From Clostridiaceae bacterium (lineage in GTDB: Bacteria; Bacillota; Clostridia; Lachnospirales; Lachnospiraceae), in the NCBI GenBank assembly GCA_910575585.1, contig CAJTGF010000057.1, positions 1-35,457 on the forward strand: DNA of 35,457 nt, written 5' to 3'. The notes below the pieces were generated by a model. It worked only from the letters and a program-made list of their open reading frames with translations, was not told the DNA's origin and did no database searches. Of the stretch, positions 27,919 through 32,841 are shown one piece after another. Position 1 is the first letter of the stretch. Each line of letters opens with the position of its first letter. Position numbers and translations under genes: made by a program.

Positions 27919-29484
27919 TTACACCATCAGCACCTTAACCTTCTTCATACAAACCCAATAATTCCTCTCTCTTGTACTTTTTGCGTCTCTTATCCGCTCC
28001 TCCATATATTCCAGCTCTCTTCTCCAGTCTGCCCGCACGATGCCCAGCTTTAAACAACGCCTTGCCTCCTTTTCCTTCTCCGCCCCCAAACCGGCATATT
28101 CCATGTCTGTCAGCGCCTTTGTGGCGGCCTTATCGTAATCGGGATTAAAAAATCTTCGCCATACCGAATCATACTCCAGCTCAAACACCGTGTTCTCCCT
28201 GCCGTCTGGCAGAAAGCAGACGTCTTCCGATGTTTCTTCTATATGGAGATAGTATAAAGACGCCCGGTCTTTTCCCTCATTAATCCGCAGAATCCTTCCC
28301 AGCCGCTGTATCCTTTGCCGCCTGGCAGCGGTTCCTGACAGAATAATACCTATGGACGCGTCCGGCACGTCCACGCCTTCATCTATGGCTTTACAGGCGA
28401 TAAGAATCCGTATCTGACCGGTGCGAAACCTTTCCAGCGCGTTTTTGTTGGCCTGCGGACCCATCTGGGAGTGATATCGTCCCACCCTTCCGGGATACTG
28501 CCGGTGCAGAAGCTTATACAGCGTTTCCGCTTGACGGATACGTTCGCCAAAAATAAGGATCTTTTCGTGTTCATCCAGACTGCCCACCAGATCCAAAGCG
28601 CAGTCAATCCGTTCCGCGGCCAGACACACCAGGCTTTTTCTTTTGTAGGAAAGCCTCATATACCCGGCCGCGGCTTCCGCGATCTCTCTGTCTTTACTGC
28701 TGCAGAGATTTTGAAGCAGCTCAAATTGTTCTTTTATGTCCATCTTTTTCAGCGCCGGATGCGCGTTCACCAAAGCGCTGTACAGCAGTGTCATTTTATC
28801 CGTAATCTCCTCATATTCGGCCCGCTCGTCCCCCTGAAAGGATAGACGGATATGAAAAACGTCGTACTGACATACGGTTCCCAATCGGGACGCCTCCTCC
28901 ATGCCGTAGGTGTATATCCTGCGCCCTAAAACGGATGTCAGGTACTGGCGGGATTGTCCAAAGGGCAGGGTGGCGGAAAGACCCAGCGTAAAAAAATTCT
29001 CCCGATACGGTTCGATAAACGGCAGAAACTCGAAAATAAGGCGGTTCTGGCCGCTGTCATAATGATGACATTCATCGGCGATCAGGAAAACGGCTTCCCC
29101 CTGTTTCAGTTCAGTAAGGATCTGCCTGGCCAGCTGGTAGCGGGCGGAGTTGATCACATAAATCATGTATTGACAGTCCGCAGAATCTTTAAAGCCTCCG
29201 CCCCGAAGCCCTACTTTTCCCGCCCATAATCTGCCTTTTTCCTCCTCCTGACCCTGGGAATAAAACTCTTTTATAGCTTTGTTCCACTGCTGCATCAGCG
29301 CGCTTGTGGGGACCACAATCTTTACCTTCAGATTGGAGTTTTTGTGTTGTAACAGCCTGCCCGCCGCTGTCAGGGCCAGAAAAGTTTTTCCGGAACCGGT
29401 AACCGCCTGAACCATTCCGCGGCAGCCATTGGACTGCCAGCGATTTAAACATTCTTCCTGCCAGCTGTAGAGTTTTCGTTCCAT
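27919..29484 (-). CDS. SF2 DEAD/DEAH-type helicase (XPB/restriction-like)
   Basis: This is a 521-residue superfamily 2 helicase. Motif I is AVTGSGKT (27-34), motif Ia VPTSALMQQW, motif II Asp137-Glu-Cys-His140, motif III SATLPFG, motif V GVDVPDAS, and motif VI QRLQRLGR-like (RIQRLGRILR). The layout resembles XPB/Rad25-like and type I/III restriction helicases, without a nuclease or methylase domain. AGGTGG precedes the ATG. It is divergently oriented from an operon with two BREX-type ATPases, with 183 bp between the starts. Helicases of this kind accompany such ATPases in BREX and Shango systems, so a defence role is plausible but not shown. Confidence 0.88.
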   Translation of the reverse strand: MERKLYSWQEECLNRWQSNGCRGMVQAVTGSGKTFLALTAAGRLLQHKNSNLKVKIVVPTSALMQQWNKAIKEFYSQGQEEEKGRLWAGKVGLRGGGFKDSADCQYMIYVINSARYQLARQILTELKQGEAVFLIADECHHYDSGQNRLIFEFLPFIEPYRENFFTLGLSATLPFGQSRQYLTSVLGRRIYTYGMEEASRLGTVCQYDVFHIRLSFQGDERAEYEEITDKMTLLYSALVNAHPALKKMDIKEQFELLQNLCSSKDREIAEAAAGYMRLSYKRKSLVCLAAERIDCALDLVGSLDEHEKILIFGERIRQAETLYKLLHRQYPGRVGRYHSQMGPQANKNALERFRTGQIRILIACKAIDEGVDVPDASIGIILSGTAARRQRIQRLGRILRINEGKDRASLYYLHIEETSEDVCFLPDGRENTVFELEYDSVWRRFFNPDYDKAATKALTDMEYAGLGAEKEKEARRCLKLGIVRADWRRELEYMEERIRDAKSTRERNYWVCMKKVKVLMV

Positions 29485-29547
29485 TTCGCCACCTGTCTGC
29501 GTTTTCGGGATATGATTATCCTTGCAAATCGTTTTGTCTATTTTTAT

Positions 29548-29553
29548 ATTTTA
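29548..29553 (-). promoter_or_regulatory. probable -10 element of the helicase gene
   Basis: The minus strand has an extended -10 (TGGTAAAAT) with the hexamer TAAAAT at 29548-29553, about 64 nt before the helicase ATG. No good -35 box is visible; TTTCGG lies at 17 nt. Confidence 0.45.
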
Positions 29554-29583
29554 CCACATCTGCGGCATTTCCGAAAGAAATTG

Positions 29584-29612
29584 TTGAAAACTCGCCTTGT
29601 ATCGCTTATACT
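29584..29612 (+). promoter_or_regulatory. promoter of the ATPase operon
   Basis: There is -35 TTGAAA (29584-29589), a 17-nt spacer and -10 TATACT (29607-29612), 55 nt before the ATG at 29668. Confidence 0.75.
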
Positions 29613-29667
29613 TTTTGTAGTTACCATATCAATTAGAATAAACTTTAACCGCAAAGGAAAACCAATT

Positions 29668-30444
29668 ATGAACTACGAAAATCTTTATGAGTCTATGCTG
29701 CCCCACCAGAAAGCTTTAAAAGACAGCCTTGCCTCTCTTCAAAAGCTTTCCAAAATTGTCACAAAGGAGACGGACGGGGGAGATATTAAGAACCTTTTAA
29801 AAGACCTGGATTCCATGAGAGAAACCGCCGCCGTTCTATCTGCCGCGCTGGAAGCCATGAAAAACGCTGCCGGCGGATTTGACACGAAAGCGTATTTTGA
29901 AAGCGGAGACTTTGCGCAGCAGATGCTGGATGCCTGCCAGGAAAAGGGTGTGGATGTCCGGGGCGCTTCGCCGGTGTATGAGATGTTCCCATACCGGGTG
30001 AAACTGGATATGGAGAATCAGGACCTTTATCTTGACCGGAAAAAGGTGCAGTGTGTACGTCCCCAAAGCTTTGTGGATATGGTTCAGAAAAGCCAGGAAA
30101 AGCTTAACCGGGCCTCCTTTAATCCCTCTGCATTTGCCGCTGAGCTGGCAGATGCCTATGACACTGCCGTCCTGAAGCTGAAACGACGGTCTGCGGCGGA
30201 TATTTACCTTAACAGCCTGTACAAATACCTGGCTCCCATGAGCCGTTTCCGAAAAGATTATGACCAGCAGAGCTTTGCTTTTGATCTGGCCAGACTGTAT
30301 ATTTCCAGGATTGAAGAGACGAAAAACGGAAGACGGTTCCAGTTCGGCCCCAGCAGGGAAAGTAATAAATCCATCCGAATCTTGGACGAAAACGGCAAGG
30401 AATACTTCCTGTCCACCATCTGTTTCTATAATCAAGAGGTATAA
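29668..30444 (+). CDS. hypothetical protein of the ATPase/helicase locus
   Basis: I do not recognise this 258-residue protein. Residues 1-75 look helical and could form a coiled coil. Residues about 95-125 (VYEMFPYRVKLDMENQDLYL) look like beta strands, and residues 130-215 are helical. The C-terminus (RRFQFGPSRESNKSIRILDE) is beta-like. There is no membrane segment, signal peptide or catalytic motif. ATG 29668 follows AAAGGA at a usual distance; the open frame extends upstream to 29512 but that part contains the promoter. The downstream ATPase starts 2 nt after its stop, so the two are tightly coupled and it is probably a subunit or adaptor of that complex. Confidence 0.75.
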   Translation: MNYENLYESMLPHQKALKDSLASLQKLSKIVTKETDGGDIKNLLKDLDSMRETAAVLSAALEAMKNAAGGFDTKAYFESGDFAQQMLDACQEKGVDVRGASPVYEMFPYRVKLDMENQDLYLDRKKVQCVRPQSFVDMVQKSQEKLNRASFNPSAFAAELADAYDTAVLKLKRRSAADIYLNSLYKYLAPMSRFRKDYDQQSFAFDLARLYISRIEETKNGRRFQFGPSRESNKSIRILDENGKEYFLSTICFYNQEV

Positions 30445-30446
30445 GC

Positions 30447-31622
30447 ATGACATCGGATTTTAATGAAATTACGGACGCCCCTCTTTCCTGCGGCATTGAG
30501 TTTCTTACGGATTTTTGGAGAGAAAAGTATCTGCAGGAATACATTAAAAACGGCGGCAGCAAGCTTAAATTTATCACCGGACGTCCGGGCAGCGGAAAAA
30601 CCCATTTTCTGCGTCTGATGTCTTCTATTGCCGCCCAGGAACATTACAAGACCGTGTGGTTTTCCGCAAAAGATGTATGGATGCATGATTTTAAAGAGGT
30701 CTATGTGGAGATTTTTCATCAGAGCGGCCTTTTGGACTGTCTGCAGGCTCTCAGCCTGCAGGTGGTGAAAGATATGGGGTTTGATTGTCAGGAGATTCCG
30801 GAAGGGATGAAGTTTTTTGACTACCTCTCCCAGAATGGAATGGGGGATGCCATGAACAAACGGGAGATCCGCACCCTTTTAAAACAGCTGTTTCTGGATA
30901 ATCCCATGCTTGACAATAATTTTGCCCTGGCCTGCTCCATGCTTACGGGAAGTATTCTGGGATATCCTCTTTTGGAGGACCCAAGCAGGGATATGCTTCT
31001 TGCATGGCTGGAGGGTGACCGCGCGGTGAAGCTTTCCCAGCTGCGTTCCCTGGGTTTTTATCCCAGCCGTATTACCAAGTTTAATGCCAGGCATATGCTG
31101 CGCTCTTTGGCAGAAGTTGTTCGGTTAAGCGGATATTGCGGACTGTTTATTGCCGTTGACGATCTGGAGATCCTGATCAGCCGCTCCAGCTTAGAGCCGG
31201 TCCACTACACAAAGGCGAAGCGGGAAGACAGCTATGAAAGCATCCGCCAACTGATTGATGATATTGATTCCATGAAAAATATTATGTTTATCTACGGATT
31301 TGACCGGGAACTGATGGACCATGAGAACGCGGGACTAAAGGCTTACCAGGCCCTGTGGATGCGGATCCAGAATGAGATCGTAGGGGAGCGGTTTAACCGT
31401 TTTTCCGATATGGTGGATCTGGATCTGCTGGCCGCCCAGGAGTACACTCCCGATGTTATTATTTCCATGTCCGAAAGTCTTGCCCACGCCCATAAGAACG
31501 CGGCCATAACTCCTCTGGATATGGATGCGGCCCGGGAGATCGCGGCCCAGGCCCGCACGGGAGCCGTAGGAATCCCCAAACTGGTCCAGATTGCTATGGA
31601 GGAGGTGAGCAGGAATGTATGA
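30447..31622 (+). CDS. BREX BrxC/BrxD-like (DUF2791-type) P-loop ATPase, first copy
   Basis: This 391-residue ATPase has Walker A GRPGSGKT (45-52) and Walker B LFIAVDDLE with Asp238-Asp239. The block LRSLAEVVRLSGYCGLFIAV, then SYESIRQLIDDID and IMFIYGFDRELMD matches what I remember of the BREX ATP-binding (DUF2791/PF10923) family: a helix before Walker B, a LRQLID-type helix, and a sensor strand. In BREX these proteins are multimeric ATPases required for phage exclusion. Here it is coupled to a hypothetical protein upstream and overlaps a paralogous ATPase by 8 nt downstream, suggesting a hetero-oligomer. Confidence 0.82.
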   Translation: MTSDFNEITDAPLSCGIEFLTDFWREKYLQEYIKNGGSKLKFITGRPGSGKTHFLRLMSSIAAQEHYKTVWFSAKDVWMHDFKEVYVEIFHQSGLLDCLQALSLQVVKDMGFDCQEIPEGMKFFDYLSQNGMGDAMNKREIRTLLKQLFLDNPMLDNNFALACSMLTGSILGYPLLEDPSRDMLLAWLEGDRAVKLSQLRSLGFYPSRITKFNARHMLRSLAEVVRLSGYCGLFIAVDDLEILISRSSLEPVHYTKAKREDSYESIRQLIDDIDSMKNIMFIYGFDRELMDHENAGLKAYQALWMRIQNEIVGERFNRFSDMVDLDLLAAQEYTPDVIISMSESLAHAHKNAAITPLDMDAAREIAAQARTGAVGIPKLVQIAMEEVSRNV

Positions 31623-32805
31623 TATTGAAGCAAGACACATTATTGAGGCTCTGCGTTCCGGCGTTCCCTCCAGAGCGGTGGGGCAGTATTTTTCCGAAGC
31701 CCGCCCGAAGATCATGAAGGATATTTCGGGCCGTCTGGAGACGGTGCGGGAAAAAGGCCGGTCCAGCGGCATGATCATCAGCGGAAAGTACGGCGAGGGA
31801 AAGACCCATCTGCTGAACACGGTTTTTAATCTGGCTCACTCCAACAATATGGTGGTTTCCTATCTCTGTTTAAGCAAGGAAACTCCCATGGACAAGCTGC
31901 ATCTGGTGTATCAGAAGGCGCTGCAGAACCTTTATCTTCCGGGCCGCCGGCAGCCGGGTTTTATGCATGAGCTGGAGAAGATCTCTCCCAACAGCCCTCT
32001 GGCCGGTGAGATGCTTCCTTTTGCGGCCAAATATCTGGAGACTGACAAGCTGTACTATTTGTTCCGGGCTTATTTGAATACGGAGGATTCCGATGAAAAG
32101 TTTCTGCTTCTGGCAGATCTGGAAGGGGATTTTGTGGCCAACGGATCTCTGAAAAAGATTTATAAGCGGATTTTCGGACAGGTGGTAAAATACAACGAGA
32201 ATTTTACAAAGACACGGCACTGTGGAGATTATTTCTCTTTTATGAGCCATCTGTTTACGCAGATGGGATATGACGGATGGGTTATCCTCATTGACGAGAC
32301 GGAGCTTATGGGGCGGCTTAGCAAAAAGGCCCGTATTAACGCTTACCGCAATATGGCCAGGTTCCTTCTTCCGGAATTGTGTCCGGAGGCAACTTTTTCG
32401 CTGTTCGCGCTTACTTCTTCTTATGTGGAGGACGTGATTGAGGGAAAGCATGATTATGAGAATCTGGAAACGATTTACCCAATCAGCCAGGAACCGGCCA
32501 GAACGGTCCTTGATATGCTGGTCCGCGCCCCCCAGCTTATGCCTCTGACAAAGGATGAGATTGTCAATGCCCTCTGCAAGATACAGGATTTTCATGGAAG
32601 GGCTTATGAATGGACTCCCAGTGTATCCCCGGAGGCTTTATCGGAAGCTACAAAGTCGGGAGGGTATCTGCTGCGTACGAAGATTCGGGCAGCTATCGAG
32701 TTTCTGGACCAGCTTTATCAGTATGGGAAGGCAGGAAAGACTACGATAAATGAACTGGGACAGGAGACGTTTGAGGAGGATGTTCCTTCGATTGAGGAGT
32801 TTTGA
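31615..32805 (+). CDS. BREX BrxD-like (DUF2791-type) P-loop ATPase, second copy
   Basis: This is a 396-residue paralogue of the preceding ATPase. Its start IIEALRSGVPSRAVGQYF is the clearest BrxD/DUF2791 hallmark. Walker A is GKYGEGKT (57-64) and Walker B WVILIDETELM with Asp227-Glu228. ALTSSYVEDV is a sensor-like strand after it. Unlike the first copy, the Walker B is followed by the standard Glu, so this copy is more likely the active ATPase. The C-terminal end is acidic (EEDVPSIEEF). The ATG lies within the end of the preceding gene, with GGAGG upstream. An intrinsic terminator follows directly. Confidence 0.85.
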   Translation: MYDIEARHIIEALRSGVPSRAVGQYFSEARPKIMKDISGRLETVREKGRSSGMIISGKYGEGKTHLLNTVFNLAHSNNMVVSYLCLSKETPMDKLHLVYQKALQNLYLPGRRQPGFMHELEKISPNSPLAGEMLPFAAKYLETDKLYYLFRAYLNTEDSDEKFLLLADLEGDFVANGSLKKIYKRIFGQVVKYNENFTKTRHCGDYFSFMSHLFTQMGYDGWVILIDETELMGRLSKKARINAYRNMARFLLPELCPEATFSLFALTSSYVEDVIEGKHDYENLETIYPISQEPARTVLDMLVRAPQLMPLTKDEIVNALCKIQDFHGRAYEWTPSVSPEALSEATKSGGYLLRTKIRAAIEFLDQLYQYGKAGKTTINELGQETFEEDVPSIEEF

Positions 32806-32808
32806 CGG

Positions 32809-32841
32809 AAAGGGGCCGAGATGCCCCTTTCTTATTTTTTT
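32809..32841 (+). terminator. intrinsic terminator of the ATPase operon
   Basis: The arms AAAGGGG / CCCCTTT (32809-32815 and 32824-32830) are followed by CTTATTTTTTT. It begins 4 nt after the stop of the second ATPase. Confidence 0.92.

What the first reader, a model, noticed from the sequence alone, without database searches (positions are those of the whole stretch)
27919..32805. Candidate defence system: divergent SF2 helicase with an orphan protein and two tandem BREX-type ATPases
The sequence shows a minus-strand helicase facing an operon of an unrecognised 258-residue protein and two ATPases with Walker A and B motifs that resemble BrxC/BrxD (DUF2791). BrxD with a helicase is known from BREX subtypes, and an ATPase with a helicase and TerB from Shango. 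Here there is no methylase, PglZ, PglX, TerB or nuclease, but there are two ATPase paralogues that may form a heteromer (overlapping by 8 nt). This gene set does not match a system I know.
Basis: partly seen in the sequence, partly recalled or inferred. Interest (0 to 1): 0.78.

Follow-up and report, generated by a model that had tools for sequence, protein, structure and literature searches.

The report
Helicase plus swappable ATPase-pair defence cassette
Four neighbouring bacterial genes encode a DNA motor and a three-protein helper set; relatives of the helper set sit beside quite different DNA motors, many belonging to known anti-virus systems, so it may be a portable part that loads or switches on such motors.

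Summary
The four genes are real and form a unit: an XPB-like SF2 helicase (-) facing an operon of a 258-aa protein without known relatives and two BrxC/BrxD-family ATPases (8-nt overlap). The helicase is present in 36 of 37 distinct relatives with room for it, while flanking genes mostly differ; at one chromosomal site the four genes are present or absent as a block.

Going outside the coordinates, the core is the trio (orphan, ATP1, ATP2). It is complete in 95 of 97 loci with room, and the three proteins diverge in step (r 0.92-0.955). In other lineages of the phylum the same trio sits with other motors: BrxL, Shango SngB-SngC, a UPF1/Mokosh-like SF1 helicase, or type I-A, I-B and I-D CRISPR-Cas genes. 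A motor or cas genes were assigned in 46 of 60 loci after near-duplicates were dropped. ATP2 keeps its catalytic residues in 44 of 44; ATP1 lacks the catalytic glutamate in 44 of 45, and all eight CRISPR-clade ATP1s read have lost Walker A.

Best reading: an asymmetric ORC/Cdc6-like pair plus adaptor that loads or activates a partner DNA motor, probably in defence. Against: the window's own clade shows no defence-island setting. It is not BREX, Shango or Pbe.

The parts
27919..29484 (-). SF2 helicase (HEL), 521 aa, XPB/RAD25-like core without XPB's N-terminal region; Walker A TGSGKT at 29383-29400, motif II DECH at 29065-29076
   Evidence: Pfam ResIII/Helicase_C; profile A4 matches archaeal XPB structures at 7e-38, our residue 4 aligning at XPB residue 92; D137 E138 C139 H140 and Q390 R391 Q393 R394 L395 G396 R397 invariant in 21 sequences
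29485..29667 (.). divergent intergenic region with a promoter-like site for the trio (TTGAAA-17-TATACT, 29584-29612, +)
   Evidence: (consensus match only, not evidence of function)
29668..30444 (+). orphan protein (ORPH), 258 aa: predicted long helical hairpin (residues 3-69) then an alpha/beta region
   Evidence: start set by relatives; AlphaFold2 mean pLDDT 87.9; no Pfam, PADLOC or NCBIfam hit at E up to 1; Foldseek PDB best E 0.28
30447..31622 (+). ATP1, 391 aa, BrxC/BrxD-family ATPase; Walker A GRPGSGKTH (30579-30605), Walker B FIAVDDLEIL without catalytic Glu (31146-31175)
   Evidence: Pfam PF10923 1.4e-28; motif table
31615..32805 (+). ATP2, 396 aa, BrxC/BrxD-family ATPase with intact Walker A GKYGEGKTH (31783-31809) and Walker B ILIDETEL (32284-32307)
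   Evidence: Pfam PF10923 4.9e-27; motif table
31615..31622 (+). 8-nt overlap of ATP1 and ATP2, suggesting translational coupling
32807..32832 (+). terminator-like hairpin (10-bp stem) followed by a T-rich tail, directly after the ATP2 stop codon
   Evidence: consensus match only

Best explanation
The locus is an accessory module made of a three-protein core (ORPH + ATP1 + ATP2) and a DNA motor (here an XPB-like helicase). ATP1 and ATP2 are ancient paralogues of the ORC/Cdc6-like BrxD kind. They most likely assemble as an asymmetric complex in which ATP2 hydrolyses ATP and ATP1 mainly binds it or only holds structure, with ORPH as the coiled-coil adaptor. The complex is proposed to bind a DNA state typical of invading or damaged DNA and to load or activate the partner motor there; the helicase then moves along or unwinds that DNA. 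In other lineages the same core would serve BrxL, SngC, a UPF1-like SF1 helicase or the Cas3/Cascade machinery. Shown: gene order, co-occurrence, co-divergence, motif asymmetry, change of partner. Inferred: complex formation, loading or activation, and the defence role.
For: Trio complete in 95 of 97 distinct ATP2 loci with at least 2.3 kb upstream (96 of 98 with one contig twice); pairwise-distance correlations 0.92-0.955 against a shuffled maximum of 0.16 (61 trios). A motor or cas genes assigned in 46 of 60 loci: BrxL 17, XPB-like 8, SF1 8, cas 6, SngC 5, SNF2 2, none 14 (BrxL, SngC and XPB-like by profile, SF1, cas and SNF2 by hand from the family scans). Among 99 trio-adjacent proteins Pfam finds BrxL_ATPase 15, DEAD 14, Helicase_C 13, AAA_11 9; among 90 control proteins over 4 kb away none of these is in the eight families matched by two or more members. 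Partner type follows the trio tree: 10 changes versus a shuffled mean of 36.8. ATP2 keeps the Walker A lysine and Walker B DE in 44 of 44; ATP1 lacks the E in 44 of 45. ATP1 and ATP2 are homologous (hhalign 99.1%). For BrxD, an ORC-Cdc6 AAA+ class and a possible helicase-loading role are proposed in PMC12839542 (passages).
Against: The window's own clade shows no defence-island setting. 14 of 60 loci show no motor with the trio, three of them (L169, L208, L212) at contig ends or in broken frames, and one relative (L097) has no helicase although there is room. The best solved-structure matches of ATP2 are helicase loader DnaI and DnaA, but only at E 0.03-0.07 around Walker A. Nothing shows that the proteins touch each other. 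ORPH has no detectable relative of known function. Adjacent and control genes were called by a simple longest-ORF rule. Only genomes of the window's phylum were sampled.
Confidence: 0.5

Rival explanations
1. The trio is a DNA sensor and switch, not a loader: it holds a partner motor or nuclease inactive and releases it when it meets invader DNA, in the way HamB is reported to restrain HamA in Hachiman.
For: It fits the same motif asymmetry and change of partner. In four CRISPR loci the trio lies between effector genes and cas1, where regulation of Cas3 or of adaptation is as plausible as loading. The Hachiman model is from the start of the abstract of PMC12278908 (listing).
Against: No partner carries an obvious separate toxin to restrain; the window helicase shows no nuclease domain in Pfam.
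Confidence: 0.25
2. The module is a DNA-repair or replication-restart accessory that reloads motors at blocked forks, and its presence near defence genes is incidental.
For: The window's clade sits mostly among ordinary genes; the helicase core is closest to XPB repair helicases among solved structures; the weak structure matches of the ATPases include a helicase loader, DnaA and RecA.
Against: Patchy presence: 8 of 299 family genomes, the window's included, carry a full-length match of at least 56% identity. Present or absent as a block at one site. Direct linkage to BrxL, Shango and cas genes in other clades.
Confidence: 0.2
3. It is a degraded or derived BREX or Shango system that lost the methylase, PglZ or TerB genes.
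For: ATPases are PF10923 members and match PADLOC BrxD/SngB weakly; a Shango-linked trio clade exists.
Against: In the Shango loci the trio coexists with a separate, closer SngB (SngB 5e-118 in L157), so there it is additional to Shango rather than its remnant. ORPH accompanies the ATPases in 95 of 97 loci. BrxD equivalog scores are 70 and 48 bits against a cut-off of 350.
Confidence: 0.05

Closest known systems
BrxD-BrxHI dyad of type 2 BREX
   Same: A PF10923 ATPase coded with an SF2 helicase; helicase loading or activation has been proposed for BrxD (PMC12839542, passages read).
   Different: Two ATPases instead of one, an extra orphan protein, an XPB-like rather than Ski2-like helicase, no PglX, PglZ, BrxC or PglW in the four-gene unit; BrxD equivalog cut-off not reached.
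Shango (SngA TerB, SngB ATPase, SngC helicase)
   Same: PF10923-family ATPase plus helicase; five trio loci lie directly downstream of SngB-SngC.
   Different: No TerB match in the window's genome; its helicase is not SngC-like; the trio's ATPases differ from the SngB in the same loci.
PbeABCD and TIGR04095 phosphorothioation-linked restriction helicases
   Same: PbeA and TIGR04095 are the best PADLOC and NCBIfam hits of the window's helicase (2e-65 and 2e-45).
   Different: 156 bits against a TIGR04095 cut-off of 600; the match starts at PbeA profile position 251; no DndC over its cut-off in the window's genome.
Archaeal XPB/RAD25 helicases
   Same: Helicase core aligned over residues 4-415 at 7e-38.
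   Different: XPB's N-terminal ~90 residues have no counterpart; NCBIfam XPB equivalog 69 bits against 610.
BrxL and type I CRISPR-Cas (Cas3)
   Same: Partners of the same trio in other clades.
   Different: Neither is present in the window's four-gene unit.

Membership tests
BREX (types 1-4) | PglZ in the locus | tested here: not met
   PglZ search of the genome finds one copy, on another contig (C79), none on C57 = the window
BREX type 2 | BrxD equivalog | tested here: not met
   70.4 and 47.5 bits against a cut-off of 350
BREX | PglX/BrxX methylase and BrxC-sized ATPase next to it | tested here: inconclusive
   None among the four genes; I did not scan every window ORF against these families
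Shango | SngA with TerB domain | tested here: not met
   PF05099: 0 of 6 module genomes, window's genome included
Shango | SngB ATPase | tested here: inconclusive
   PADLOC SngB only 2.5e-15 and 6.3e-15; the SngB of a Shango locus scores 5e-118
Shango | SngC helicase | tested here: not met
   SngC is not among the 25 of 58 PADLOC families shown for the window helicase, so weaker than about 1e-5 if matched at all; the SngC of L157 scores 2.7e-166
Pbe/Dnd restriction | DndC-type modification genes in the genome | tested here: not met
   TIGR03183: no match over cut-off in 6 module genomes
Pbe/Dnd restriction | TIGR04095 equivalog helicase | tested here: not met
   155.8 bits against 600
Anti-phage defence system (any) | reduces phage or plasmid propagation | not testable with these tools
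   needs plaque and plasmid assays
Anti-phage defence system (any) | genomic linkage to known defence genes | tested here: inconclusive
   not in the window's clade; yes in the BrxL, Shango and CRISPR clades of the same trio
BrxC/BrxD (PF10923) ATPases | Pfam gathering score | tested here: met
   100.4 and 95.3 bits against 22.2

The most novel reading that the evidence does not exclude
The trio is a general plug-in of bacterial immunity: an asymmetric ATPase pair with a dedicated adaptor that loads or switches on whatever DNA motor a lineage uses (XPB-like helicase, Cas3/Cascade, BrxL, SngC, UPF1-like helicase). It would be a helicase-loader equivalent shared by CRISPR, BREX-related and Shango immunity, not described in the papers I could search.
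Probability: 0.4. Interest if true: 0.87.

Novelty: new variant of a known kind. Interest (0 to 1): 0.72.

Why it matters
Many defence systems contain helicases whose recruitment to foreign DNA is unexplained. A conserved three-protein set that keeps its own composition while its motor changes, even across three type I CRISPR subtypes, would give one handle on how those motors are loaded or controlled. It also makes a proposal in print directly testable: that BrxD-like ATPases load helicases. The catalytic asymmetry predicts which subunit's catalytic site can be mutated without effect.

Tried and rejected
Rejected: BREX or Shango membership (PglZ only on another contig, no TerB). Rejected: a phosphorothioate-linked restriction helicase (no DndC over cut-off). 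Rejected: chance adjacency.

Led nowhere: sequence search of solved structures with ATP1/ATP2 (nothing at 0.01 with A2/A3; with the broader profiles DnaI/DnaA at 0.03-0.07 for ATP2 and RecA fusions at 3e-7 and DnaA at 0.002 for ATP1, all around Walker A). The ORPH profile hits mostly coiled coils and designed helices, none better than 0.0036. Foldseek of ORPH against PDB has no match below E 0.28. tblastn of ATP2 against plasmids and phages: no match (window ATP2; L138 ATP2; L171 ATP2 against plasmids only). One search repeated, since both centres lie in one class. Phyla other than the window's were not sampled.

Literature: full-text searches listed no paper whose title or abstract start describes the trio (one search was on Pbe only). 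Most listed papers were not opened. The library lacks most subscription papers and preprints, and supplements could not be read, so absence from print is not shown. Seen: PMC12839542 (abstract, section list and passages); PMC11096173, PMC10910872 and PMC10952713 (passages); PMC12278908 (listing only). That PglX, PglZ and TerB define BREX and Shango is partly recalled, partly from those passages; names read from sequence starts without a scan (Hsp70-like, ComEC, P-type ATPase, the Cas1 of L084) are recalled resemblances.

Rows dropped before counts. tree: L144 and L170 out (incomplete trio). tree: L205 out (no ORPH/ATP1), L144 and L170 not entered, most Lachnospiraceae copies not entered; near-duplicates L158, L161, L150, L153, L214, L216, L217 out; eight loci with contig ends or broken frames carried as unknown; from the 117 adjacent and 104 control proteins I gave 99 and 90, leaving out L150, L153, L161, L162, L211, L214, L216, L217, one of the two adjacent L212 entries and the doubled L200 entries, to stay under the residue cap; 76 of the 141 neighbours listed, chosen by hand, mostly the nearest on each side. 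each counted one contig twice (L062 = L092); one search recounts.
Full report
WHAT IS THERE. The nearest named relative (L031, trio 89% identical over 1033 columns of the tree alignment) is an uncultured Hungatella sp., so the host is probably of that genus in Lachnospiraceae (inference). The four genes lie as reported: helicase 27919-29484 on the minus strand, and ORPH 29668-30444, ATP1 30447-31622, ATP2 31615-32805 on the plus strand. The true start of ORPH is taken as 29668 (258 aa), because most relatives begin at or near there and several have in-frame stops further upstream. A promoter-like site precedes ORPH and a terminator-like hairpin starts two bases after the ATP2 stop codon, so the trio is probably one operon (consensus matches only). 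ATP1 and ATP2 overlap by 8 nt, exactly so in 30 of 38 relatives (a few of the 38 are one contig fetched twice).

IT IS A UNIT. One pattern-based scan of 84,980 species genomes, which finds close relatives only, returned 34 related loci; 8 of 299 genomes of the same family, the window's included, have a full-length match of at least 56% identity. In 36 of 37 distinct loci that hold ORPH and either the helicase or at least 1.8 kb upstream of ORPH, the helicase is there. It lies divergently upstream in all of them but L096, where it is downstream on the plus strand; in L063 three genes are inserted between it and ORPH. The exception is L097, whose upstream gene carries a fucose isomerase C-terminal domain. 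Apart from the module no gene cluster was found in more than 11 of the 42 loci compared. At the abh-tetR site a relative of the same genus (L232) has the same neighbours as L031 but no module, L031 has the module between them, and the window has the module without the extra neighbours and in the opposite orientation. So the four genes come and go as a block. Broken copies exist (L048, L064, L083); I only note them.

THE HELICASE. Its profile matches archaeal XPB/RAD25 structures over residues 4-415 (7e-38); XPB's first 90 or so residues have no counterpart. The best PADLOC and NCBIfam hits are PbeA and TIGR04095, the latter far below its curated cut-off. No nuclease domain was found in Pfam.

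THE ORPHAN. No hit in Pfam, PADLOC or NCBIfam at E up to 1. AlphaFold2 with 23 sequences gives mean pLDDT 87.9: a helical hairpin (residues 3-69) and an alpha/beta part. Foldseek against PDB: no match below E 0.28.

THE ATPASE PAIR. ATP1 and ATP2 are homologous (hhalign 99.1%, 293 aligned columns, 15% identity) and both are PF10923 (BrxC/BrxD) members. They are asymmetric. In 44 ATP2 sequences across the clades the Walker A lysine and Walker B Asp-Glu are kept in 44 of 44. In 45 ATP1 sequences the residue after the Walker B Asp position is not Glu in 44 of 45 (L080 is the exception), and Walker A is lost in the six CRISPR-clade members of that set and intact in the other 39; two further CRISPR-clade members read (L201, L203) have lost it too. 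This suggests one hydrolysing and one non-hydrolysing subunit (inference).

THE CORE IS THE TRIO. With diverse profiles, ATP2 was found in many other lineages of the phylum: 14 of 398 genomes sampled across it (E up to 1e-20), and in three classes 4 of 20, 41 of 154 (E up to 1e-15) and 27 of 113 (E up to 1e-30). Other phyla were not sampled. Of 97 distinct ATP2 loci with at least 2.3 kb upstream, 95 have ORPH and ATP1 on the same strand nearby; the exceptions are L083 (decayed) and L205 (lone ATP2). Distances between the three proteins correlate at 0.92-0.955 over 61 trios, with a shuffled maximum of 0.16.

THE PARTNER CHANGES. Right after ATP2 lies BrxL in 18 loci plus L219; a representative scores PADLOC BrxL 6e-103 and Pfam BrxL_ATPase 8e-90, and in L159, L162 and L165 a RecQ-like helicase follows. 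In five loci (L145, L155, L157, L158, L164) SngB and SngC of Shango lie upstream of ORPH (representatives 5e-118 and 3e-166); the gene in the SngA position, scanned in L145 only, showed no TerB or other hit. In ten loci (L206, L207, L209, L210, L213-L218) a UPF1/Mokosh-like SF1 helicase follows ATP2 (L209, L213 and L218 scanned, the rest by similar N-termini), and L134 has a related one upstream. In six loci the trio is in a type I CRISPR-Cas context: L084 (I-B), L085 (Cas8a, I-A), L087 (I-D), L202 (I-D), L204 (Cas3b, so I-B-like), L086 (only cas6 seen, contig end). In L084, L087, L202 and L204 it lies between effector genes and a cas1 gene (L202's Cas1 scanned; three Cas1 among the adjacent proteins; L084's read from its sequence start). 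CRISPR arrays are seen in L087 (71 repeats) and L204 (46). L085 and L202, from one genus, are alike at DNA level over the flank (91% over 6.9 kb) and over the trio (87% over 3.4 kb); likeness stops just upstream of ORPH, where one has type I-A and the other type I-D effector genes, and only a 200-base stretch of L202's cas1 is left in L085. The effector set changed while the trio stayed.

CONTROLS. Pfam on 99 trio-adjacent proteins: BrxL_ATPase 15, DEAD 14, Helicase_C 13, AAA_11 9, Cas1 3. The same on 90 proteins of the same loci more than 4 kb away: no helicase or BrxL family among the eight families matched by two or more members; of families with one member only 17 are listed, so single helicases are not excluded. 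By locus, a motor or cas genes were assigned in 46 of 60: BrxL 17, XPB-like 8, SF1 8, cas 6, SngC 5, SNF2 2, none 14 (presence anywhere in the fetched stretch, adjacent in most). On a tree of 69 trios the partner label needs 10 changes, against a shuffled mean of 36.8 (short search, many rows of unusual composition, eight rows of unknown partner not counted). Against the defence reading: in the window's own clade 76 neighbouring proteins gave few PADLOC matches at 1e-20 (type III restriction-modification, one GajB-like, one reverse-transcriptase-linked helicase model, mad3 in three; 25 of 44 families shown).

MECHANISM. BrxD has been classed as an ORC-Cdc6 AAA+ ATPase and proposed to load or activate the BrxHI helicase (PMC12839542, passages). 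The trio fits a loader or activator of that kind: two paralogous subunits, one of them non-hydrolysing, an adaptor, and a motor that differs between clades. Complex formation, loading and defence are inferred, not shown. A sensor-switch reading and a repair reading remain open.

KNOWN SYSTEMS. Not BREX: PglZ of this genome is on another contig, and the BrxD equivalog cut-off is missed. Not Shango: no TerB match in six module genomes. Not Pbe/Dnd: no DndC over the cut-off. I did not scan every ORF of the window against defence families, and PADLOC dates from 2023. My paper searches found no description of the trio, within the limits stated under Tried and rejected.

VERDICT. The larger finding is a conserved trio whose DNA motor changes between clades, several of these motors being parts of known immune systems. 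Parts are known families; the combination and the change of partner appear new.

Noticed in passing
L085 and L202: Two genomes of one genus carry close trios at the same chromosomal site (91% DNA identity over a 6.9-kb flank, 87% over the trio), but with type I-A effector genes in one and type I-D in the other; L085 keeps only a 200-base stretch of L202's cas1.
   Followed up: partly
L145, L155, L157, L158, L164 (gene next to SngB): These Shango-like loci have a 250-570 aa gene in the SngA position; the one scanned (L145) shows no TerB or other family hit.
   Followed up: no
L089:624-10509: A deep-branching trio is followed by a co-directional run of genes including an Hsp70-like protein (read from its sequence start) and a metallo-beta-lactamase/beta-CASP protein, with no obvious motor.
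   Followed up: no
L091, L171, L172: A deep trio clade has a 346-418 aa helix-turn-helix protein directly upstream of ORPH (L091 and L171 scanned; L172 by cluster with L171).
   Followed up: no
L205:9390-10628: A lone ATP2-like gene without ORPH or ATP1, near genes that by their sequence starts look like ComEC and DNA polymerase III delta (names recalled).
   Followed up: no
L063:2238-5439: Three extra genes (about 387, 312 and 363 aa) sit between helicase and ORPH in this relative.
   Followed up: no
L031:11296-15296 and L232:8659-12659: Genes of about 600 and 731 aa that look like a type III modification and restriction pair lie at the module site in the nearest relatives but are absent there in the window (type III models among the neighbour hits).
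   Followed up: partly
G000 contig C79:11036-11566: The window's genome has a PglZ-domain protein (852-aa frame, 1.2e-54) on another contig, so a separate BREX-type locus probably exists.
   Followed up: no
L048, L064, L083: Broken copies of module genes (split ORPH or helicase frames, truncated trio), suggesting loss in some lineages or assembly errors.
   Followed up: no
L168:9643-10277: A BrxL-type trio locus has a short CRISPR array (11 repeats) about 4 kb upstream of ORPH.
   Followed up: no
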